Below are positions 24,709 through 61,213 of a stretch of 64,000 bases of DNA, in pieces. Each line of letters starts with the position of its first letter. Position 1 is the first letter of the stretch. A program made the translations under genes and the position numbers. The notes beneath the pieces were generated by a model. That model searched no databases. It was not told the DNA's origin and saw nothing but the letters and a program-made list of their open reading frames with translations. The stretch comes from Thermoplasmata archaeon (GTDB lineage Archaea > Thermoplasmatota > Thermoplasmata > Lutacidiplasmatales > UBA184), in assembly GCA_021809545.1 (NCBI GenBank), contig JAKAYL010000002.1:1-64000 (forward strand), read 5' to 3'.

Positions 24709-27081
24709 TTACTGTTCTTCGGATGGAGGAGTGTCTCCCGAGGAGGCATCGGAGGACTCCGACGCGTTCCCGGAGGAAGAATCATCCGAGTTCCCCTCGC
24801 CACCGGAGTTCTCCGAGGACGGGGTCCCGTCAGGGGCCGCTTCGGTGGTCATACCTGAGACGGCGCCTGCGGCCGCGGCGTAGCGGGCTTGCCGCTCCAT
24901 CCTGCGCCGCTTCCGGAGCTCTCGCTTGCTGAGCTTCTCGGGAGGCGGGGAAGCGGGGGCGGGGTCAGCAACGGAGGGCTCAGAAGAAGGGGGCGCCTCC
25001 GGAGCCGCTTCGGGAGCCGACGGCTCGGAAGTAGATGGCTCCGGGGATGTTTCCGGTTCTACAGGGGGTGAGGATACGGGCTCTTCGGGCGCGGCGGCGG
25101 GCTCGGCCGCCGGGGGTTGAGGCTCGGCAGGGGCTTCCGCAACCGCGCTTCCCACTGCGACGGCGGCAACTCCTGCCTCAAGTTCCGAGGGGGGAACCCC
25201 CGAGGGTCCGGTGGGGCCCGAAGGGGCCGGCGCCGACATCGCCTCCTCAGGCTCGCCCTTCTTGCGGCGCCGGATCGCGACCAGCAGGACGAGGAGGACG
25301 ATGAGGAGGAGTAGGACGAGGAGAATGAGCCACAGATAGCTTCCGATCACATTGGTCGGCTGGGGCGCGGAGGTCGTGATGGTCACGGTGTGCGTCACCT
25401 TGTAGCTCGCTCCCGCGGAGTCGTTGACCCAAACGGAGATCGTGTAGGTCCCGGCGCTGGTCCAGGTGTGGGACTCGTTCGCCAGCCCGTTCGCGACCAG
25501 CGTCCCATCTCCAAAGTCCCAGGTGTACTTGTAGGCGGGGACTCCCCCGGTTGCACTGACGGTGAAACTGAGGGGGGTGCCTGCGCTGCCGTTGGAGGGC
25601 CCTGTGAGCGTTGCCACCAAGGTGGGCGGGGGAGGTGCCTGGGTCACCTTCACGACGACCGAGCTCGTGGCCGTGACGTTGTAGAAGTCGGTGACGACGA
25701 CACTGAACGTGTAGCTCCCCGCGGCGGAGAGGGTGTCGTTGAAGGTGTTGCCCGGCTGGACCTTGAGGACGGTGCTCCCAAGCTTGAAGAGATAGCTGTA
25801 AGGGGAGAAACCGCCCTTTGCCGTGGCCACGAGCTCGGTGGTGAGCGGGGCATTGCCACTGACCTTAGAGGCGGCGAGAGCGACCGTCACGGAGGGGACC
25901 ACCGGGAGGACGAGGCTCGTGCTGGCGGAGATCCCGGTCGCATTCGTACCGGTGACGTTCACGGTGTAGTTCCCGGAGGCGGTGTAGACATGCTGCACCG
26001 TGGCCGAGGAGGTGGGTCCGAGAGAGGTCGTGTCACCGAAGGAGAAGAGGTACTGGAGTGCGGTCGACGATCCCGAGACGGTGGCCGTGAAGGAGGTGTT
26101 GGCCCCGACCTCGCTGGGGGAAGGATTCGGGAGGAGAGAGATCGTGAAGCCCACCGACACGGTCAGGGAGTAGATGGGGGAATCTACCCGATAGTTGCTC
26201 GTCGCGTTGAAGGCCGTGACGTTGAAGGAATAGGTGCCAGGACGCTGGTAGGCGTGACCAGCAACATTGGTGCCGGGGGCCGTGAGTCCGGAGTTGTTCC
26301 CATCTCCGTAGGTGAAGAAGTAGCGCCAACCCGCACCGGCGGGGGAGAGCACTGCGGTGAAGTTCACCGTCTGCCCTGCCTTGGGAGCGGGAGGCGACCA
26401 GACCATCGTCAGCGATGGGATGGCGAGCACCGTGACGGGGCTCGTGGCATTGGCAGAGGTGTTCCCGGCAGCGGTGACGGTCACGTTGGCGGGGAAGGTC
26501 CCTGCGCTCGCGTAGGCATGGACGGTGGTATTGATGGAGGTCGTCAACAACGGGGAGCCGTCCCCGAAATTCCAGAGATAGGAGTACGGGGGCAGTCCAC
26601 CCCGGGTGGTGGCGGTGAGGGTCACGTTCTGGCTCACGTACGCGGGGGTGGGAGTGACGGAGAGCGCGACCGTGAGATTCTGCGCCAGAAGGGTCACGTT
26701 GCACCAGCTGCCAGGGTACTTGGTGTTGACCGTCGTGTTGTTGGTTCCATGGGCGCCAAAGTAGTTCGCCGTTACGGTGACTAGATCCCCGTTCGTCGAA
26801 TTCGTCAGGCTGCTGACCTGGTACTCTCCGAGCGAGTCCGTGACGGTGCTTTGAGAGGTGTTCGCAGTGGTGTCGTTGACGTAGACTTGGGCACCGGAAA
26901 TGTGCGTGCCGTTCTTGAGAACGACGAACCCGTACACGTAATAGGGGCTGGGAGGGGGCTTGGCGAGCGCTACCCCGCCGTTACCGAGGAGGGCCAGGGA
27001 GAGGGATGTCCCGAGGATCAGCAGCGTTGCGATCAGCGAAAGGATTTCCCTACTATTCTGTCCCTTAATTCTCACGCCCAC
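24709..27081 (-). CDS. Surface protein with CarboxypepD_reg-like N-module, PKD domains, TM anchor and long low-complexity cytoplasmic tail
   Basis: 790 aa; PYYVYGFVVLKNGTHISGAQVYVNDTTANTSQSTVTDSLGEYQVSSL; repeated YLWNFGDGSP-type PKD motifs; SYLWLILLVLLLLIVLLVLLVAIRRRKK; GTG start. Confidence 0.82.
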   Translation of the reverse strand: MGVRIKGQNSREILSLIATLLILGTSLSLALLGNGGVALAKPPPSPYYVYGFVVLKNGTHISGAQVYVNDTTANTSQSTVTDSLGEYQVSSLTNSTNGDLVTVTANYFGAHGTNNTTVNTKYPGSWCNVTLLAQNLTVALSVTPTPAYVSQNVTLTATTRGGLPPYSYLWNFGDGSPLLTTSINTTVHAYASAGTFPANVTVTAAGNTSANATSPVTVLAIPSLTMVWSPPAPKAGQTVNFTAVLSPAGAGWRYFFTYGDGNNSGLTAPGTNVAGHAYQRPGTYSFNVTAFNATSNYRVDSPIYSLTVSVGFTISLLPNPSPSEVGANTSFTATVSGSSTALQYLFSFGDTTSLGPTSSATVQHVYTASGNYTVNVTGTNATGISASTSLVLPVVPSVTVALAASKVSGNAPLTTELVATAKGGFSPYSYLFKLGSTVLKVQPGNTFNDTLSAAGSYTFSVVVTDFYNVTATSSVVVKVTQAPPPPTLVATLTGPSNGSAGTPLSFTVSATGGVPAYKYTWDFGDGTLVANGLANESHTWTSAGTYTISVWVNDSAGASYKVTHTVTITTSAPQPTNVIGSYLWLILLVLLLLIVLLVLLVAIRRRKKGEPEEAMSAPAPSGPTGPSGVPPSELEAGVAAVAVGSAVAEAPAEPQPPAAEPAAAPEEPVSSPPVEPETSPEPSTSEPSAPEAAPEAPPSSEPSVADPAPASPPPEKLSKRELRKRRRMERQARYAAAAGAVSGMTTEAAPDGTPSSENSGGEGNSDDSSSGNASESSDASSGDTPPSEEQ

Positions 27082-27093
27082 ATCACCTGTTGT

Positions 27094-30000
27094 TCATTCC
27101 GTGAAGGTCCCGCTCGCGGTCGTCCACACGTATACCGCAGAACCCGTAGGTATGTTAAAGTTGTAGGTAGGGTCGGAGAAGCCCACGATGTACGTTACCC
27201 AGGTCTGGGTTGCGGAATCCCACCAGCAGATGGCCTGCGCTCCAGGAATGGATGCCGCGAGAGTGGAGGCGTTCTCCGCGGACGTTGACGACCAGCCGAT
27301 CCCGGACCAACCGGGACCGAAGGCGACACCGGAGACCGTGGATGACGCATTCCCCCAGATCGTGATCGAAATGGCCGAGCTCACGTTGATCCAGATCCCG
27401 TTCCCGGGGCTGATAGCGACAGAGCCGTTGAGCGAGTTCCCCGGGCGGGAGTAATTGGTCTCTCCCGTCCCGACGAGGACCTGGAGGTAGGAGAAGGGGG
27501 CGCCCATGAGGACCGAGAGCTCGTACGCCGTGTACGCGTTGGCGATGAGGGGCAACGCCACGAGGTTCCATCCCTTGACGAGCGAGAGCTGGGCCGAGGC
27601 CGACCCCCAGACCGTGAGCGAATAGCTGGCGGTGCTCGTGTATCCCAGGGCGTCCGTCACCGTCAGCGCGATGGTGTACGTGCCCGGTTTGTAGTAGATC
27701 TGATTCGGTGGCGTGACCGCGGTGGAGGTGTTCCCGTTGCCGAAATTCCAGGCGAGCGTGAAGGCACCGTGCCCGTAAAGGCTCGTGTTCGCGAAGGTCT
27801 CATTGGCCGGCACAACGGGATGGGTCGAAGAGACGGTGAACGCGGCTTGGACGTGCTGGTAGACGGCGATCGTCAGCGAGGCCTTGCCCGACACGGTGTT
27901 CTTCGAACTGTTCACGAAAAGGGTCATGCTCGAAGAAGTGGGCGTGGTGTAGATGTGGCAGCCCGTGACCGAGGTAGCGCTCGTGGAAGCCGAGGTCTTG
28001 GTACCGTCCCCCCAGGTCCAGTTGAGGTAGAAGGGAGCGGTGACCTTGGTTGCGGTGAAGCTGGTGTTGAAGCACAGGGCATAGTTGGTCTCTCCGGTCG
28101 CCGTCCGGTTGGCCACGATCGGATTCACAGTGATCGAACCTGCAGAGGCGATCACGTCGACGTTGAAAGGAGTGGCGCAGCCGAAGGTCTTGCTCAGGTT
28201 CCCGGTGGTGGCCCAGGCAGAGAGGTTGTAGGGGCTCCAGGAGTTACCCTGGTTCCTGTCCGTCGCCCAGACGCAGTACTGCAGCGTGCCGGTCGTGGTC
28301 AGGCTGGCCGCGGGGATGCTCCCGGTCCAGGTGCCGGAGGTGGAGCTTCCTGAGGAGAGCGTGAGGGTCGTGTTCTGCCACGTTCCCCCGGGAGCGAGGT
28401 AAGAGACATTCACGTAGTTGACGGACTGGATGTCGTTCACGGTGGCCGTGATCGGGTAGCCAGCTCCCACGGTGGCCCCACCCTCGGGGTTCGTTGCGAC
28501 AAAGGGCTTCCCGAGGTCCTTAGAGAGGTTCAGGGCCATGGGGATCCCGTATCCCGTGGAGGTGTTGTAGTCCTGCGCCCCATTGAAGTAGGCGTTGCTC
28601 CCGTTGTTAACGAAGTAGACCGGGTCGAGCAGGTTGTTGGGTTGCTTGTAAAGGTACTGGAACATGAGGCCGTAGAACGCAGGATCGAGCTGGCCGAGCT
28701 TGTGGCCCAGGTAGACCATCATCGCCCCAGTGAGTCCTGCGGTGGCGGGCGAGGAGAAGCTGGTCCCCCCATAACCTGTCAGCCAAGCGCCGCTGTGCCA
28801 GGAGGCCATGTTGGCTCCCGGTCCGGACCAATCCGGAGCCGGGCGGGCCGACGTGGTGGACCAAGGGGCCCCTCCATCGGCGGTGGTCGTGGTGATGGCA
28901 TTGCCCATGCTGGAGTTGACCGCGTAGCCGATCTGGTACCAGGCTTTCGGGAAGGCGGTGCTGACCCCTCCCTGGCTCCCGGCGAAGGTGGTGGAGCTCT
29001 GACACCAGTTCCACACGTCATTGCCATAGTTGTCGGAGTACGTGGTGGAGGCAGCCACCATGTTCGCGGATCCGCCCACGCTCATGACGTAGGGAGAAGA
29101 TCCCGGGAAATCCAACCCGGGCGTCCCAGGATTCGTGCAAGTGCCATGGGAGGCGATGCTCCCGTCCCCATCGGCGCTGGAGGCAAAGAGCGAGATGCCC
29201 ATGGAGGTCGCCTGTTGGTAATCCTGCTCATAGGTGGCCTCGAAGGAGCCAGCGGTCATGTTGACATCGTTACCTCCCCAGGACTGCGTGATGACATCGA
29301 GGTTCGGAACGTTGGTCAACAGCCAGCTGAGCAGAGCTTCCAAGGCGGCGTTGGAGCTGGAGCTCACCCACGTCGGATCGAGATAGGCACCGGGGGCGTC
29401 CGTCCCCGAGTACTGCATGTCGAGGGTGAGCTCGATGTCCCCACAGGTGCCCGTGCCGGGCGCCGAGGTGGTGTAGCCAGGTACCGAGTAGTGAGGCTGG
29501 ATGGTGGGCTTGGGGAGACCGCTCCAGTACCCATCGCTCAAGTTGAAGAACTCGTTCATGTCCGTCAGGGAGTAGCCGCAGTCGGACTTGGAAGAAGCCC
29601 AGAGGGTCTGGGCGATCTTCACTCCCTGCGCGTAACTCGCCACCACACCGTGGGAGGCGTTCCCCGTGGAGTTGTACATCTGGTCGAGTTGGAAGATCTG
29701 GTGCATGTAGGTGGGGTAATCCAAGACCCCGGATCCCGGGCTCGCCATGGGTCCCATCTTCGAGTTCTGAACGAAGTTGGTGTGCACCGAACTGGGCAGG
29801 TTGTTGAGCCCCTCGACCCCGAGGATCCAGGGGGCAAGCTGGGCCGGGAGGGTAGGAGTGCCCGAGGGAGCCCAGTACGAACCGTGCACCGCGTCGCGGT
29901 AGGTGGCGAAGCTGACACCGAAGGCCTTCGATAGCTCGGATGTCGTGCCCGTGGCCTCGATCGTCAGATGGTCCGAGGAGACGTACCGAACCTGAAGGCC

Positions 30001-30459
30001 GGAGCTCGAGAGCCAAGAAGCGACCGCGCTCGTCTCCGAGGCCGGAGGTGAAAACGCTTCGGTGAACTGTTGCAGCGTCAGGAAATGCGCGTAGAGAGGG
30101 GAGGAAGGATCGGATACCTGCTGGTCGAAAAGGGCCAGCATCGCGGGATTGTTCACCGACATCGTCACCACGATCTGGGCCGAGGTGGAGGGACCGACGG
30201 GACCCACCTCGTGCCCTCCGAGGCCCGATCCGGTGAGGGCCGAGACGAGGGCGACCCTCCCCACAGGGGTGGTGAGGGTCTGGGGAGAGGCCCCCGAAGT
30301 TACGGTGACCTGGGAAGAGAAGGAAGTGGCGCCCAAGGGGAGCGCGTTCGCGGGCACAGAGTACGACAACACACTGAGCAAAGTGATCCCCAATGCCCAC
30401 CAGGCCAGGTACTGTCCATTCCTTCGGCCAAGACCTCCTTTCCAACGGTATCCTACCAT
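27094..30459 (-). CDS. Secreted S53 (sedolisin/kumamolisin-like) protease with propeptide, PKD domains and double-GWN C-terminal module
   Basis: 1121 aa; propeptide DPSSPLYAHFLTLQQFTEAFSPPASE..LSKAFGVSFATYRD; ELTLDMQYSGTDAPGAYL; GGTSFSSPATAGLTGAMM; PKD LAWNFGNGNTS. Confidence 0.87.
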   Translation of the reverse strand: MVGYRWKGGLGRRNGQYLAWWALGITLLSVLSYSVPANALPLGATSFSSQVTVTSGASPQTLTTPVGRVALVSALTGSGLGGHEVGPVGPSTSAQIVVTMSVNNPAMLALFDQQVSDPSSPLYAHFLTLQQFTEAFSPPASETSAVASWLSSSGLQVRYVSSDHLTIEATGTTSELSKAFGVSFATYRDAVHGSYWAPSGTPTLPAQLAPWILGVEGLNNLPSSVHTNFVQNSKMGPMASPGSGVLDYPTYMHQIFQLDQMYNSTGNASHGVVASYAQGVKIAQTLWASSKSDCGYSLTDMNEFFNLSDGYWSGLPKPTIQPHYSVPGYTTSAPGTGTCGDIELTLDMQYSGTDAPGAYLDPTWVSSSSNAALEALLSWLLTNVPNLDVITQSWGGNDVNMTAGSFEATYEQDYQQATSMGISLFASSADGDGSIASHGTCTNPGTPGLDFPGSSPYVMSVGGSANMVAASTTYSDNYGNDVWNWCQSSTTFAGSQGGVSTAFPKAWYQIGYAVNSSMGNAITTTTADGGAPWSTTSARPAPDWSGPGANMASWHSGAWLTGYGGTSFSSPATAGLTGAMMVYLGHKLGQLDPAFYGLMFQYLYKQPNNLLDPVYFVNNGSNAYFNGAQDYNTSTGYGIPMALNLSKDLGKPFVATNPEGGATVGAGYPITATVNDIQSVNYVNVSYLAPGGTWQNTTLTLSSGSSTSGTWTGSIPAASLTTTGTLQYCVWATDRNQGNSWSPYNLSAWATTGNLSKTFGCATPFNVDVIASAGSITVNPIVANRTATGETNYALCFNTSFTATKVTAPFYLNWTWGDGTKTSASTSATSVTGCHIYTTPTSSSMTLFVNSSKNTVSGKASLTIAVYQHVQAAFTVSSTHPVVPANETFANTSLYGHGAFTLAWNFGNGNTSTAVTPPNQIYYKPGTYTIALTVTDALGYTSTASYSLTVWGSASAQLSLVKGWNLVALPLIANAYTAYELSVLMGAPFSYLQVLVGTGETNYSRPGNSLNGSVAISPGNGIWINVSSAISITIWGNASSTVSGVAFGPGWSGIGWSSTSAENASTLAASIPGAQAICWWDSATQTWVTYIVGFSDPTYNFNIPTGSAVYVWTTASGTFTE

Positions 30460-30545
30460 GTTTCAGTTTCCAGAGATAGGTGATCCCCAAGATTCAGGTA
30501 TAGAAGCCACATTCCCCCAAATAAGCATTGTGGTGTGATAGCACC

Positions 30546-33506
30546 TCACTCTATCATGGAGGTACTCGAAGGTACCCACACCAGCACGCCCGTGCCATCG
30601 GACACCGCGAAATCATACGAGGGGTCGGAGAAGCCGACGATGAACGTCACATAGGACTGGGTCGTGGAGTTCCACATCGAGATCGCCGAGGCGTTCGGAA
30701 CGAGTGCCGCGAGCGCCGAGGCGTTGGTCGCTCCGCTCAACGACCAGCCCACATTGTTCCAGCCGCTCTGGAGGGAAAGCGCAGGGAAGAGGGGCCCCGT
30801 CGTGAGGTTCCCGGAGAGCGTCACGGTGAGCGCGAGGGACACGTCTACCCACACCCCGCGTCCCGGCGCCACCGCGTACGTCGCTGCGTAGGCACCGCCT
30901 CCCGGATAGGAGACGTTCCCGGCTCCTGTCACGTTCTGAACGGTGACGGACGTCGTGGCGGCCGAGGAGCCGTAGATCGCGGTCAGCACGTGGAAATACG
31001 CCCAGAGGGAGTAGCTCTCGTTCGTGGTGGGGGAGGCGACCAGGTTCCATCCCACGTTCAGGTGGAGCGTCGTGTTGACCCCGGAAACGAGGAAGGTCTC
31101 CGTGACGAGGAGATGATCGGAGACGTTGTCCTTGACCAGGAGGTGAACGGTGTACCGACCCGAATTCCAGTAGGTGGTCACCGGTGAGTTGGGTCCTGTC
31201 AGACCGTTCGCCACGTTACCGTTGCCGAAGGTCCAGTTGTAGGAGACGTAGGTACCGCTGCCACCGGACACGAGGGCGTGGAAGGTGGCATTGACCGGCG
31301 GGTTCAGATTCCCGGTAAGCGTACTGTTGGTGAAACTTGCCCCGAGGTCGGGATAGATGAACAGCTTCAGCGAGACTGAGACCGATTCTCCCTGGGTATC
31401 GTTGACCGTCAGGTTGACCGACGTGTTGGTGACCACTGAGTAGGTCTGGAACTCCTGGTTGAGCGCCGAGGTCGAGAGACCCGCGACACTGAGCGTGTTG
31501 CCGTTACCGAACTGCCAGGCGAAGGTGAGGCCCGGCACACCGCCCGTCACCGAGGCGTTGAAAGCGACGGAAAGGCTGACCTCCCCGGCGGTGCGGTTGG
31601 CGACCAAGGTGGGGGTTGCGAGCGCGTTGTAGACGGTCAAGGGGGCGGAGCTGGTCCCCACCACCCCGACCGAGTCCGTGACGTTCACCCGGAGGGTGTA
31701 GGTCCCGGCCACACCATAGATATGGGTCGTGGAGACATTGCACCCACTCGTGGTGCACGAGGCGAGGAAGAACGACCCGCCTCCAAAGGAGATGTTGAAA
31801 CTGAATCCGGGAGTCCCGGTGCCTGCGGTCATCTGTGCCTCGACGGTCAGTACCTCGCCGACGTACGCTGACGAGGTTGCGGGCCCCAAGTATCTGTAGA
31901 TCGTCAGGTTCACCACGGGGGTCGAGTTGACGACGAGGAGTCCCATCGAAGAGAGGTTGCTCGTGCCGACGCTGTCACCGGCCCGGGCCGTGGGATGGTA
32001 CGTTCCGGCGACAGGGTAGGACACACCCGACAGTGTGTAGCTCAGGACGGAAGGCAGCGAGTTCGTGAAATTGCTGTACGTGCCTGCGCCGGTGGTGATG
32101 TTGAAGTAGAGGTAGGGCAGAGTTCCACCGGAAGCGGTGTCGGTCAGTGCGACCGGCGAATTGATGTCGGTGTAGGTCACGTTCGAGGAAATGGCGGCGT
32201 GGAGCGGAGCATTCACGGTGATCCCAAGGACCGCGGCCACGGAGACGGCCTGGGCCGAGTTCGTGACGCTGTTGGTGGCGGTGTCGTTCAGGAGCAGGGT
32301 GACGATGTACGATCCCGAGGAGGCGTACGCGTGCGTAACGGTGCAGATCGCGGTCGCCAAACACGTGGCGGTCTGCTTGGCCCCGTCCCCGTAGGCGAAG
32401 AAGAAGGTGTAGGCCGCACCACCCGAGCCGCCCTGGGCGTCCGCGGTGATCGTGACCGTCTGGCCCGCATCGGCGGGATTGGGGGTGGCGTGGAGGTCGA
32501 TGAGATACACCCATACCGGCACATGGGAAGGTCCGGCCGTCTTTGCGGCGGAGTCCGTGACCGTGAGGTTCGCCTCGTAGCTCGCGTTGCTCGGGGCAGT
32601 GTAGGCGTGGGTGGTGGAGTTCGTGGCAAGGGAGGACGAGAGGGACACGCTAGCGCCGGCCTGTCCGAACTGGTAGTTGTAGGTGTAGGGTGCGGTTCCC
32701 CCGCTGACGGAGGCGGTGAACGACACCGATTGGCTCTCGTTGACGGCCTGGGGAGTGTCTGTGAACGAAGAGATCGAGGGGGGAGCGTTGGAGGTGATGG
32801 AGAGGCACGGGGTCTGCCAGGAGTCCCCGGCCGAGTCATTGACGACGAGCTGCGCGCAGTAGGGACCTCCCTGGGAGTAGTTGTGATCGATGTACGGATG
32901 GGCTTGGTTCCATAGGCTGGGAGTGCCGTCTCCGAACTTCCAACCAAATACGTAGGAGCCGTTACCACCGAGGGTGGGGGCGGCGGTCCGGTTGTTGAAG
33001 AGGTGGACCCAGAGGGGGGCTTCCCCCGAGGTGACGTTAGCGGAGAGGTGGGGCGTCAGTTGCGGATAGACGAGGGAGAGGTTGAGCCAACTGCCCGGTT
33101 TTGACGTGACGACCGTCGTGGAGTTGGTCCCGGTGGCATTGCCGTACTTGTGCGAGGCCCCGACCAGCGCATCGCCGTTCTTGTATCCGGGGGCGAGCGA
33201 GCTCACCTGATACTTGCCAGCGGAATCCGTCACTGCGGTCTGGGAGGCCGAAGGGTTGGTAGTGTCGTTGATCCATACCGTGACCCCGGCCGCGGCGACC
33301 GTGGAGGTATTGGTGTGGATCTTCACGTATCCATAGACATAGTATGCCGGAGCGGGGGGCGGAGCTGCAATGCCCTCCGGCGAGACCTGGGAGGAGGCCG
33401 TGCTGGCCAGGAGCGCGGCGGAACCCGAGGAAAGGATGAGACCCCCCAGCACCACCGTAAGAATCAAAATATTCAGTTGTTCCCCAACACCCCAAGACCC
33501 CAGCAC
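30546..33506 (-). CDS. Secreted surface protein with CarboxypepD_reg-like N-module, multiple PKD-like domains and double-GWN C-terminal module
   Basis: YYVYGYVKIHTNTSTVAAAGVTVWINDTTNPSASQTAVTDSAGKYQVSSL; FGWKFGDGTPS; NWTFGNGNVANG; start uncertain (GTG at 33506 proposed; ORF extends to 33593). Confidence 0.8.
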   Translation of the reverse strand: MLGSWGVGEQLNILILTVVLGGLILSSGSAALLASTASSQVSPEGIAAPPPAPAYYVYGYVKIHTNTSTVAAAGVTVWINDTTNPSASQTAVTDSAGKYQVSSLAPGYKNGDALVGASHKYGNATGTNSTTVVTSKPGSWLNLSLVYPQLTPHLSANVTSGEAPLWVHLFNNRTAAPTLGGNGSYVFGWKFGDGTPSLWNQAHPYIDHNYSQGGPYCAQLVVNDSAGDSWQTPCLSITSNAPPSISSFTDTPQAVNESQSVSFTASVSGGTAPYTYNYQFGQAGASVSLSSSLATNSTTHAYTAPSNASYEANLTVTDSAAKTAGPSHVPVWVYLIDLHATPNPADAGQTVTITADAQGGSGGAAYTFFFAYGDGAKQTATCLATAICTVTHAYASSGSYIVTLLLNDTATNSVTNSAQAVSVAAVLGITVNAPLHAAISSNVTYTDINSPVALTDTASGGTLPYLYFNITTGAGTYSNFTNSLPSVLSYTLSGVSYPVAGTYHPTARAGDSVGTSNLSSMGLLVVNSTPVVNLTIYRYLGPATSSAYVGEVLTVEAQMTAGTGTPGFSFNISFGGGSFFLASCTTSGCNVSTTHIYGVAGTYTLRVNVTDSVGVVGTSSAPLTVYNALATPTLVANRTAGEVSLSVAFNASVTGGVPGLTFAWQFGNGNTLSVAGLSTSALNQEFQTYSVVTNTSVNLTVNDTQGESVSVSLKLFIYPDLGASFTNSTLTGNLNPPVNATFHALVSGGSGTYVSYNWTFGNGNVANGLTGPNSPVTTYWNSGRYTVHLLVKDNVSDHLLVTETFLVSGVNTTLHLNVGWNLVASPTTNESYSLWAYFHVLTAIYGSSAATTSVTVQNVTGAGNVSYPGGGAYAATYAVAPGRGVWVDVSLALTVTLSGNLTTGPLFPALSLQSGWNNVGWSLSGATNASALAALVPNASAISMWNSTTQSYVTFIVGFSDPSYDFAVSDGTGVLVWVPSSTSMIE

Positions 33507-33554
33507 GCGGAATCCAGACTTCGTACTTCCACCCCTCTGGGCTGTTATGACATG

Positions 33555-33565
33555 GCAAGTATATA
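33555..33565 (-). promoter_or_regulatory. TATA box-like element (GGATTATATACT on minus strand)
   Basis: Located 50-60 bp upstream of the proposed start of the 1015-aa surface protein. Confidence 0.4.
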
Positions 33566-33644
33566 ATCCGTTCTCAGGAATCCGCCGGGCCAAGGACGAG
33601 GGTCGGTCCCGTTCCGGGGGAACTTCTCCCCGTGAGGGGCCGGT

Positions 33645-57034: not shown

Positions 57035-60000
57035 CTACGGCGCCTGCGGCGCGGTGCCGAACCGAGAGGGCGGGGAGGCAGCGACCATCAGGACCGGGAA
57101 CCCCATTCCCAGGTTCTCCAGCGCCGGATGCGTGGTGTGCAGGGCGATCGTAACGGGAGAGATAGCGTGGTAACCCGAGCCAGAGATGGGAGTGGCGGGG
57201 GGTTGCCCATTGTAGGTGACGTGCACCAACCAGACAGAGGCGGCCGAGGACATCTCCCAAGAGACGCCGTTCTGGGAATCGGTATGGGCATCCACCAGGA
57301 TCCTTCCTCCCGAGGTGCTCACGATCACGGCGACATGGTCGACGTTCCAGATGTTCGTGCCGGTAACGTCGTTCCAGTTGTAGCCGATGAAGTCTCCCGG
57401 CTGGAGCTGCGAGAGCTGGGCGGAGGAGACCGAAGTGGCGGGGACGAGACCGTTCGTGACCGAGGTCGCCCACTTGGCGTTCAACATGTCCCCGACGAGA
57501 TGGGGTGCGGAGGGAATGCCGTAGGGGCCGCCGCTCGTGGCATCGGGCAGCTTCTCGATCGGCACCCCGCCTCCACCATCGTCACCGATGGCGCTGCTCA
57601 CGAAGTGGGCGCAGTCGCACCCGTTGTTGTTCTCGTAGCTCGTGATGGTTGCGCCCGGGCCGCCATCCTGACTGGGGGAGAGGAGCCCGCCGCAGAGCCA
57701 GAAGTACCCGTCCTTGTTGACCTCGTTCCAGTACGTGTTCGCGTAACTTACCGCCGCGTTCCGGTTGTAGGCGCCCGATCCCGGACCGCCCCCGCTGCTT
57801 CCCGTCGTGCACTGGTCGTTCGGACAAACGGTGGACCAGGGCAGATTGGCCTGATTCTGGTTGTAGCCGGAGCACCGGACTGAGCCGGTGCCGGTGAACC
57901 CGTTCGGAGCCCATTTGCAATAGGCGCCCGAGATGTAACTGCCCCAGAAGCAGGAGAAGCTGTTCCCGCAATCCTGGTACTCCGCGTAGGACCATTCGAA
58001 CGCGCAGGTGGGGTTGAAGTAAACCCCACCCCAGTCCGTAGCCCCGGAGCACTGGGAGTAGGAAGGGTACCCGGTGATCGGGCTGGGCTCACCCTGGGGC
58101 ACCGGCTGGGGCTGGAGACATTGTCCCGACGGGGAGGTCTGGGCCGGATGACCCAGCTGAAGGATCCCGAGTGCCTGGCATCCCGAGTTGGGGGCAACGG
58201 TGGAGCAGGCCCCGCTGCCGCCCTCGATCGCCCCGGGGCAGAAGGTGCTTTCTTGGTACGCCATGGAAACGACCGTGATCACGAGCGCGCTTGACGGGAA
58301 GCCCCCGTTCATGGCGCAGTCCACCGCGGCCTGAAGGTTGAGGGAATGACCGTTCTGATAGTAACTCTGATCGGGACACCCGGCCCCGGCGCCCCCGCCT
58401 CCGCCACCGCCGCCACCACCACCACCGCCTCCCCCGCCTCCACCGCCGCCGACGGCGGGAGGGTGCTCGAGGGTGTAGAGGAAGTTCCAGAACTCGGTGT
58501 TGGGGATGGCAGCTCCACCGTCATCCAGGGCGAACCACCCTAGGTTCTGGAGATGGTGGTAGACGCTCCAGTTCGCCTCGGACTCCATCGCGGGCAGTGC
58601 GTTCGGGCTCCCCGCACAGTTGACGGAGCTGAGCAGCGCCCCCAACTGGTTTCCCGTAAGGCCCGCGGCCTGGAGGGTTTGGATGGCCTGCTCGTAACCC
58701 GTGACCGAGCAGGTGAAGTCCTTGAGGTACCAGGTGACGCCCGCCCCCGCCATGGCGGGGAGGAACCAGAAGTCACTGCCCGAGTTGCCGGTCTCCCAGA
58801 GGCTGGAGGAGCCGACGAGGGCATCCAATTGGAGTCCCTTGGCCTTGAGCGCGGAGGCGAAGCTGTGCATGAAGTTGCCGAAGAGAACACCCTCGCCGCT
58901 CGAGACGCCGACCCCGTCACAAGGAGTGGGCTCGAAGTCCACGACATAGCCCTTGTACCCGCTAGCCTGGGCGACCCCGACAGCCGACTGGATGAAATGG
59001 GCCTGGGCCCCTGCTCCGGAGGAGAGGAAGGTCTGCAACGATGCGGCGGGGCACCCCCCCGCGGTAATGGTTGCGAACACCGGGAGACTGTTCTTCTGAC
59101 CCCAGGAAGTGAGGTTGTTCTGGGGGTTGAGGAACCAGGAGGCGGGCTCAAAGCCGCCAGACGGAGTGAGTTCGTAACCGTACTCCGCGAGGTCCTGCAT
59201 GTCGGGAACGAGAGCGGTGTAGGTCGAGGAGAAGGCCGAGGCATTTCCGATCCAGGCACACGACTGGCAGACGACCGGGAGGAAGTATGCGGGCGGCGCA
59301 GTGATGGCCACGGCGATCACCGAGGTAGCGGTCGTGCCCTGCCCGTCCGTCACGGTGAGGGTGGCGGTGTAGCGGCCCTCGGCGGAGTAGACGTGAGCGG
59401 GGTTCTGAGAAGTGCTCGTACTTCCGTCGCCGAAGTTCCAAGAGTAGGCATAGGGTGGGAGCCCTCCCGCGGCGGCTCCTTCAAATTGGAATGTCGTGGC
59501 CGATGCTTCCCCGCTTCCGGGGGAGACGGACGCCCTGGCGGTGAGCTTCGGCACCTTGACCGTGATGGCGAAGGTATTCGACACCGAGTTCCCGGCGCTG
59601 TCCCTGACGGTCAGGGTCGCCTGGTAGTTGCCCTGGGCGGTATAGTTGTGGGACGTCGCCGAAGAGTAATTCAACGCACTATTGTCCCCGAAGTTCCATG
59701 TGTAGTTGTAGGGAGGGCTGCCGCCCGAGGGGGTGGTGGCGAAGTTGACCTGGAGCGGAATGTTCCCACTCACCGGACCGACCGTGTTGCTCACCTTCAG
59801 GGGTCCGCCGATGCCACCTCCCCCTCCTCCGGCGCATCCCGCAGGATACTGCCATAGCATCCATTGCTGGCTATAGAGGGTCACGACCAGGTTGACGTCG
59901 ACCGTGAGGCTGAGCCCCCAGAACTGGAGACCGATCTTCTTCAACCCGGCGACGACCTGCAGCCCCACCGAGAGCGAGAGACAGTACTTGAACGAGGACA

Positions 60001-61213
60001 AGGTGGCGGTCAGTTGTCCCTGGAAGTCGAGGTAGGGGCGGATGTAGAAATAGGGCCCGACGATGGAATAGTAGAATTTCGTGTCGACCTTCGGCACGTC
60101 GGCGTAGGCCCATACATCGAAAGAGGCCTGCAGGGTCGGGGCGGTGACCGTCGTAGTGTTACTATACTTGCTGATCGGCTGCCATCCGTTCGCGGAGCTG
60201 TACTCGAATCCCGCCTCCGCGGTGAAGGTATAGTCGATGGAAGCGCTCACTTGTGCGTCGACCGTGACCTGGACCCCCAGCACGATCTCCGGGGTGATGG
60301 AAATCTCCACGGGGACCGGGCCGATGTCGAACCAGAGGTTCCAGGTGGTCAGCGGGTAGGTCACGCTCGCCTGGTAACTCACCTTGTCGGAGATCGAGGC
60401 GGAGAGAAGGGCATCGTTGGTCATCTCGAGCTTGACCGAGAACTGGTTGACATTGATCCCGCAAGGGACGAAGAGACACCACTTGAGGGAAACGTCGAGG
60501 TAGGCCTTGAGCTCGACATCGAGGGAGTCCGTGGCGGAGATCGAGATCGTGACCACGTTCGACCCACCCTTGAAGTGGGTGGTGGTCTTCCAAGTGTACC
60601 CGTACGTCTGCGACCAAGAGAGGAGAGTCACGGTCCCGCCCGCGCTGATATCCGTGGTGACGTGCCCATACTTGGCCACCGCCTGGGAGTACTCCATCGG
60701 ACCGTCGATCCACACCTTGCCCTGAAGGATGACGTTCGTGATGGAAGCGTTCGTTGTGTTGAGGATGTATTCTCCGTTCGCAAAGAGCTTCTGCGTGACC
60801 ACCCGGAAGACCCCCGGCTGCTGGATGCTCACAAGGACGGAACCGGGCTGTACCCCCTGGATCTGGGTGGCCGTGTATCGGAAATAATAGACAGAGCCTT
60901 GCACCGCGAGGAGCTTTCCCATCGTGGAGGGCCCCAAGACCATGACCTGTTTGTTGATGTAGACGCCCTGGGTCTGCACAACGTACCCATTGCTGAAGTA
61001 GGTGCCGTTCGCCACGGAGGTGGCATAGTTGTTGATATCACCGACCTGGGAGGTCGTGGAGGGGACGGCCTTCGCAGAGACCGGAGCTGCCACGTTCCCC
61101 GGGGCTATCTGGATCGCTGAAGCACCGGAGGAAAGGACCAGGATGCCCAGTACGAGGAAGACGTAATGTGCGGGGTGGCTCCTCAGGCTCCACAGATCCT
61201 GCCACAGCGCCAT
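57035..61213 (-). CDS. Large secreted multidomain enzyme candidate: N-terminal beta-rich region, two PKD domains, GH18-like barrel, Gly linker, lysozyme/SLT-like domain, Amidase_6-like domain
   Basis: 1392 aa; GYKGYVVDFEPTPCDG; SMAYQESTFCPGA...SGCQALGILQLGH; AYNRNAAVSYANTYWNEV...GCDCAHFVSSAIGDDGGGG...NVDHVAVIVSTSGGRILVDAHT. Confidence 0.75.
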   Translation of the reverse strand: MALWQDLWSLRSHPAHYVFLVLGILVLSSGASAIQIAPGNVAAPVSAKAVPSTTSQVGDINNYATSVANGTYFSNGYVVQTQGVYINKQVMVLGPSTMGKLLAVQGSVYYFRYTATQIQGVQPGSVLVSIQQPGVFRVVTQKLFANGEYILNTTNASITNVILQGKVWIDGPMEYSQAVAKYGHVTTDISAGGTVTLLSWSQTYGYTWKTTTHFKGGSNVVTISISATDSLDVELKAYLDVSLKWCLFVPCGINVNQFSVKLEMTNDALLSASISDKVSYQASVTYPLTTWNLWFDIGPVPVEISITPEIVLGVQVTVDAQVSASIDYTFTAEAGFEYSSANGWQPISKYSNTTTVTAPTLQASFDVWAYADVPKVDTKFYYSIVGPYFYIRPYLDFQGQLTATLSSFKYCLSLSVGLQVVAGLKKIGLQFWGLSLTVDVNLVVTLYSQQWMLWQYPAGCAGGGGGGIGGPLKVSNTVGPVSGNIPLQVNFATTPSGGSPPYNYTWNFGDNSALNYSSATSHNYTAQGNYQATLTVRDSAGNSVSNTFAITVKVPKLTARASVSPGSGEASATTFQFEGAAAGGLPPYAYSWNFGDGSTSTSQNPAHVYSAEGRYTATLTVTDGQGTTATSVIAVAITAPPAYFLPVVCQSCAWIGNASAFSSTYTALVPDMQDLAEYGYELTPSGGFEPASWFLNPQNNLTSWGQKNSLPVFATITAGGCPAASLQTFLSSGAGAQAHFIQSAVGVAQASGYKGYVVDFEPTPCDGVGVSSGEGVLFGNFMHSFASALKAKGLQLDALVGSSSLWETGNSGSDFWFLPAMAGAGVTWYLKDFTCSVTGYEQAIQTLQAAGLTGNQLGALLSSVNCAGSPNALPAMESEANWSVYHHLQNLGWFALDDGGAAIPNTEFWNFLYTLEHPPAVGGGGGGGGGGGGGGGGGGGGAGAGCPDQSYYQNGHSLNLQAAVDCAMNGGFPSSALVITVVSMAYQESTFCPGAIEGGSGACSTVAPNSGCQALGILQLGHPAQTSPSGQCLQPQPVPQGEPSPITGYPSYSQCSGATDWGGVYFNPTCAFEWSYAEYQDCGNSFSCFWGSYISGAYCKWAPNGFTGTGSVRCSGYNQNQANLPWSTVCPNDQCTTGSSGGGPGSGAYNRNAAVSYANTYWNEVNKDGYFWLCGGLLSPSQDGGPGATITSYENNNGCDCAHFVSSAIGDDGGGGVPIEKLPDATSGGPYGIPSAPHLVGDMLNAKWATSVTNGLVPATSVSSAQLSQLQPGDFIGYNWNDVTGTNIWNVDHVAVIVSTSGGRILVDAHTDSQNGVSWEMSSAASVWLVHVTYNGQPPATPISGSGYHAISPVTIALHTTHPALENLGMGFPVLMVAASPPSRFGTAPQAP
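58390..58452 (-). repeat. Poly-glycine coding low-complexity linker
   Basis: Plus-strand ccgcc/acc runs encode more than 20 consecutive Gly between two domains of the 1392-aa protein. Confidence 0.85.

What the first reader, a model, noticed from the sequence alone, without database searches (positions are those of the whole stretch)
27094..31080. Shared double-GWN C-terminal module on two adjacent secreted proteins
The S53 protease (27094-about 27590) and the 1015-aa PKD protein (30546-about 31080) end in homologous modules: GWNLVALP...G.GIWINVS...GPGWSGIGWS...TQTWVTYIVGFSDPTYNFNIPTGSAVYVWTTASGTFTE and GWNLVASP...GRGVWVDVS...QSGWNNVGWS...TQSYVTFIVGFSDPSYDFAVSDGTGVLVWVPSSTSMIE. Neither has an obvious C-terminal TM, unlike neighbours with TM anchors. 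Inference: a non-covalent surface-retention or sorting domain.
Basis: partly seen in the sequence, partly recalled or inferred. Interest (0 to 1): 0.65.

Follow-up and report, generated by a model that had tools for sequence, protein, structure and literature searches.

The report
C-terminal anchor-replacing module in archaea
Two neighbouring exported proteins of a Thermoplasmata archaeon end in the same unnamed double-repeat domain, which across this archaeal phylum sits at the very C-terminus of exported proteins in place of the usual membrane anchor and so is probably a previously unmodelled way of holding proteins on the cell surface.

Summary
The S53 protease (27094-30459, minus) and the PKD protein (30546-33593, minus) end in homologous modules of about 165-175 aa, each made of two diverged copies of one unit of about 80 aa. 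No Pfam, NCBIfam or PDB model matches it, yet it is a large family in Thermoplasmatota: 78 of 300 class genomes, up to 17 copies. Of 70 distinct intact copies, 65 end within 12 residues of the stop codon.

In the window's genome 29 of 32 other intact PKD/S53 proteins end in a TM anchor, against 0 of 2 with the module. A same-genus species has the closest module-less S53 homologue with a C-terminal TM instead. Most tellingly, in related families the module sits on oligopeptide ABC-transporter binding proteins (SBP_bac_5): 0 of 10 with the module have a C-terminal TM against 53 of 59 without (Fisher 2.4e-8), and three lie beside permease genes. Such proteins must stay at the membrane, so surface retention is the best reading. 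The ligand, and whether retention is non-covalent, are not shown. Occurrence outside Thermoplasmatota was not testable.

The parts
27097..27597 (-). double-GWN module of the S53 protein (aa 955-1121), ending at the stop codon
   Evidence: homologous to the module of the PKD protein, E 2.8e-30
27340..27597 (-). unit 1 of the S53 protein's module (GWNLVALP...GNGIWINV)
   Evidence: two-fold repeat
27097..27339 (-). unit 2 of the S53 protein's module (PGWSGIGWS...GSAVYVWTTASGTFTE)
30549..31076 (-). double-GWN module of the PKD protein (aa 840-1015), ending at the stop codon
30798..31076 (-). unit 1 of the PKD protein's module
30549..30797 (-). unit 2 of the PKD protein's module; AlphaFold2 model pLDDT 86, strand-strand-helix-four strands
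27094..30459 (-). gene A: sedolisin (S53) protease with propeptide, PKD and module; candidate catalytic residues E343, D347, D430, S567 by motif
29800..30213 (-). pro-kumamolisin activation domain (PF09286) of gene A
27610..27768 (-). PKD domain directly before the module in gene A
30546..33593 (-). gene B: PKD-repeat protein with module
24709..27081 (-). gene C: PKD protein with C-terminal TM anchor and long tail; third gene of the conserved B-A-C series (12 bp after A)
25273..25329 (-). approximate TM anchor of gene C (hydropathy 3.89)

Best explanation
The module is a C-terminal cell-surface retention domain that takes the place of a transmembrane anchor. The protein is exported by an N-terminal signal sequence. 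The two homologous units of about 80 aa fold outside the cell at the very C-terminus and bind a shared component of the envelope (S-layer or membrane glycoprotein, glycan, or a membrane partner such as gene C), so the enzyme or binding domain stays on the cell without a TM helix. Shown: homology, internal duplication, C-terminal position, anchor substitution. Inferred: that it retains the protein, that it does so without a covalent bond, and every candidate ligand.
For: C-terminal position: 65 of 70 distinct intact modules end within 12 residues of the stop. Own genome: other intact PKD/S53 proteins have a C-terminal TM in 29 of 32, module proteins in 0 of 2, Fisher 0.018. Swap between homologues: in a same-genus genome (G004) the closest module-less S53 homologue, about 44% identical over aa 1-799, has no module but a C-terminal TM at aa 2794 of 2840; the intact more distant S53 homologues of the family also carry a TM after the catalytic domain. 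SBP_bac_5 proteins in 11 genomes: 0 of 10 with module have a C-terminal TM, 53 of 59 without do, Fisher 2.4e-8; the module-bearing ones whose N-terminus is complete show no obvious lipobox cysteine. Three module SBPs lie next to same-strand BPD_transp_1 permease genes (G089:C1:3662, G089:C1:1079899, G029:C74:23412). Partner domains are diverse but typical of exported proteins: S53, PKD, fn3, beta-helix/NosD, FG-GAP, SBP_5, metallophosphatase. No match to any catalytic family.
Against: No localisation or binding data. Three modules (L046, L050, L052, all one genus) are followed by a linker and a TM, so module and TM are not strictly exclusive; two others are followed by further domains. The own-genome test rests on two module proteins. 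The genome tests are not corrected for shared ancestry among paralogues. TM calls are from a simple hydropathy window. At least one module SBP with long flanking sequence (G082:C1:522627, single-contig genome) has no permease gene nearby.
Confidence: 0.62

Rival explanations
1. The module is a C-terminal sorting and processing signal: a dedicated machinery recognises it, cuts it and attaches the protein covalently to lipid or glycan, in the manner of type IX secretion C-terminal domains or archaeosortase tails.
For: Strict C-terminal placement on many different cargoes. Of 51 class genomes with an exosortase-family gene, 40 also carry the module, against 78 of 300 overall.
Against: The window's genome has no PF09721 hit and no genome of its family appears among the positives, although several carry the module. 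The module is a large folded double unit with no TM or basic tail, unlike archaeosortase substrates. No T9SS or PGF-CTERM model matches. The exosortase association follows families and may only mark envelope type.
Confidence: 0.13
2. The module is a binding or adhesion domain for an external target (polymer, particle, other cells); the proteins are released or bridge to a substrate, and lack of a TM reflects free secretion.
For: A secreted acid protease and a PKD stalk protein could plausibly be released; aromatic GWN/GYW motifs could form a glycan-binding face.
Against: Does not explain its presence on ABC-transporter binding proteins, some beside their permease genes, whose paralogues are TM-anchored. 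Cargo diversity argues for a common cell-borne ligand.
Confidence: 0.14
3. The module is a structural C-terminal cap or oligomerisation domain with no role in localisation.
For: Folded beta-rich repeat at chain ends; predicted unit is compact. Three proteins combine it with a TM.
Against: The strong inverse association with TM anchors is not expected of a neutral cap.
Confidence: 0.11

Closest known systems
GW modules of Listeria InlB/Ami (non-covalent cell-wall anchors; from memory)
   Same: About 80-aa units with a Gly-Trp motif, in tandem, at the C-terminus of surface proteins without TM or LPXTG
   Different: Bind teichoic acids of Gram-positive walls, which archaea lack; SH3-like fold; no Pfam hit to that family in the module; predicted unit here contains a helix between strands
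PGF-CTERM / archaeosortase anchoring
   Same: C-terminal, exported archaeal proteins, surface attachment
   Different: Needs a short motif, a TM helix and a basic tail; none of these here, and no exosortase hit in the window's genome
Type IX secretion C-terminal domains
   Same: Folded beta-rich domain at the C-terminus of varied cargo, including proteases
   Different: Bacteroidota outer-membrane system; no T9SS model matches
C-terminal TM anchors of archaeal exported proteins (PMC2910488)
   Same: Same position, same protein types; evidently the state that the module replaces
   Different: Hydrophobic helix with basic tail, not a folded soluble domain

Membership tests
Listeria-type GW module | Match to the Pfam model of the family | tested here: not met
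   No such hit among members at E up to 1 or 0.1
Listeria-type GW module | Tandem units of about 80 aa at the C-terminus, no TM | tested here: met
Listeria-type GW module | Non-covalent binding to an envelope polymer | not testable with these tools
   needs a binding assay
PGF-CTERM / archaeosortase substrate | C-terminal motif + TM + basic tail | tested here: not met
   Both proteins end with the module; no C-terminal TM
PGF-CTERM / archaeosortase substrate | Archaeosortase gene in the genome | tested here: not met
   0 matches in G000
Type IX secretion C-terminal domain | Match to the NCBIfam/Pfam T9SS C-terminal models | tested here: not met
Double-GWN family (defined here) | Two homologous units, C-terminal, exported protein | tested here: met
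S53 sedolisin (gene A) | Pro-kumamolisin domain and E/D/D/S catalytic motif | tested here: met
   PF09286 2.4e-26; E343, D347, D430, GTS567 by motif; activity not tested

The most novel reading that the evidence does not exclude
A phylum-wide soluble anchor of Thermoplasmatota: one folded double-unit domain that archaeal proteases, stalk proteins and ABC-transporter binding proteins exchange for a TM helix, docking on one common envelope component, possibly with its own partner gene (gene C in the window's lineage).
Probability: 0.4. Interest if true: 0.75.

Novelty: new variant of a known kind. Interest (0 to 1): 0.6.

Why it matters
How proteins are kept on the surface of archaea that lack a rigid wall is known mainly for TM helices, lipid anchors and archaeosortase. 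A widespread folded C-terminal module that replaces TM anchors, with no model in Pfam or NCBIfam, would let many unannotated Thermoplasmatota proteins be assigned to the cell surface and would make its envelope ligand a findable target. If it holds transporter binding proteins in place, it also bears on peptide uptake in uncultivated acid-environment archaea.

Tried and rejected
The first own-genome search used a partly invented query and found nothing; it was replaced by the true sequence. No relatives in plasmids, phages or viral contigs. PDB sequence search: one chance-level phage tail hit at 0.018, not supported by the wider profile. The full-module AlphaFold2 model was poor (pLDDT 57) and was not used for fold search; the half-unit model is good (pLDDT 86) but has no significant match in PDB (best E 0.25, TM 0.44, a cupin) or BFVD. 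Paper search for the GWN strings found nothing. Rejected: catalytic domain (no family match), T9SS or archaeosortase substrate (features not met). Distribution outside Thermoplasmatota could not be tested with the searches left.

Full report
What is there. The window lies in a 1.96 Mb, 83-contig genome. Named relatives of the module are mostly Thermoplasmata MAGs, so the host is a Thermoplasmata archaeon; a finer name was not established. Gene B (30546-33593, minus) encodes a PKD-repeat protein and gene A (27094-30459, minus) a sedolisin with a pro-kumamolisin domain (2.4e-26) and the expected E/D/D/S motif residues. Both start with hydrophobic signal-like segments. Gene C (24709-27081), 12 bp after A, is a PKD protein with a TM anchor.

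The module. The last 167 and 176 residues of A and B are homologous (E 2.8e-30) and are the only copies in the genome. Profiles of the two halves align with probability 99 and score 89, against at most 14.6 for column-shuffled controls, so the module is a tandem duplication of one unit of about 80 aa. The second unit of B is modelled with pLDDT 86 as two strands, a helix and four strands; Foldseek finds no significant match in solved structures. No Pfam, NCBIfam or PDB sequence model covers it.

Distribution. A profile finds it in 78 of 300 genomes of the class and, with a wider profile, in 59 of 293 of a phylum-wide sample, up to 17 copies per genome. It is absent from many well-completed genomes of about 1.5 Mb. 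Whether it exists outside the phylum was not testable here.

Position. Of 70 distinct intact modules, 65 end within 12 residues of the stop codon, three are followed by a linker and TM (one genus), two by other domains. In the window's family the final residue is a conserved Glu.

Test of the anchor idea. (1) In the window's own genome every PKD or S53 ORF was fetched. Leaving out two cut by contig ends, 29 of 32 without module have a C-terminal TM, 0 of 2 with it (Fisher 0.018). (2) In G004, same genus, two tandem large ORFs hold the closest module-less S53 homologue; they have a C-terminal TM and no module; the intact distant S53 homologues in the family likewise have a TM after the protease domain, while intact module-bearing S53 proteins in G006 and G016 have none. 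(3) Pfam scans showed the module on SBP_bac_5 proteins. In the 11 SBP-bearing genomes of 12 searched, 0 of 10 intact module SBPs have a C-terminal TM, 53 of 59 others do (Fisher 2.4e-8). No lipobox cysteine is evident in those with a complete N-terminus. Three of the ten sit beside same-strand permease genes. An exported protein with a class I signal and no C-terminal TM is normally released (PMC2910488), and a binding protein that feeds a permease has to stay near it. This is the strongest argument that the module retains its protein at the surface. The six TM-less non-module SBPs include some with a strong N-terminal hydrophobic segment that may anchor them.

Limits. Paralogues share ancestry, so the Fisher values overstate independence. 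TM segments come from a hydropathy threshold; one S53 protein (C2) counted as TM-less probably has a weak TM as its orthologues do. Nothing here shows the ligand or excludes covalent attachment.

Gene order. B-A-C is conserved in G016 (L055, L209), and parts of it in G001, G002, G006 and G011, with the next two downstream genes of the window also kept in G001. Gene C could be the membrane partner of the two modules; this is conjecture.

Known systems. It works most like the tandem GW modules of Listeria (from memory) but is not a member by sequence; it lacks the features of archaeosortase or type IX substrates. Lutacidiplasmatales genomes, also Thermoplasmatota from acid settings, are reported to be rich in extracellular S53 peptidases (PMC9287336), which fits the setting but does not name this organism.

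Noticed in passing
L185:1116-9635 and L186:845-9478 (G004 contig C69): Two tandem very large S53 ORFs (2840 and 2878 aa) with the same match score in their protease part: a recent duplication or an assembly artefact.
   Followed up: no
class-wide search: Exosortase-family genes and the module co-occur (40 of 51 exosortase-positive genomes have the module), yet no genome of the window's family is among the exosortase positives. Likely linked to envelope type or phylogeny.
   Followed up: partly
24709-33593: Conserved B-A-C gene series of two module proteins and one TM-anchored PKD protein.
   Followed up: partly
57035-61213: Large PKD protein (1392 aa) without C-terminal TM and without the module.
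   Followed up: no
L073, L074, L075, L082: Some phylum members carry more than two units of the repeat, so unit number varies.
   Followed up: no
G000:C2, G002 (L192), G003 (L193): S53 proteins with long lysine-rich C-terminal tails after the TM; others in the family end in zinc-ribbon-like CxxC motifs.
   Followed up: no
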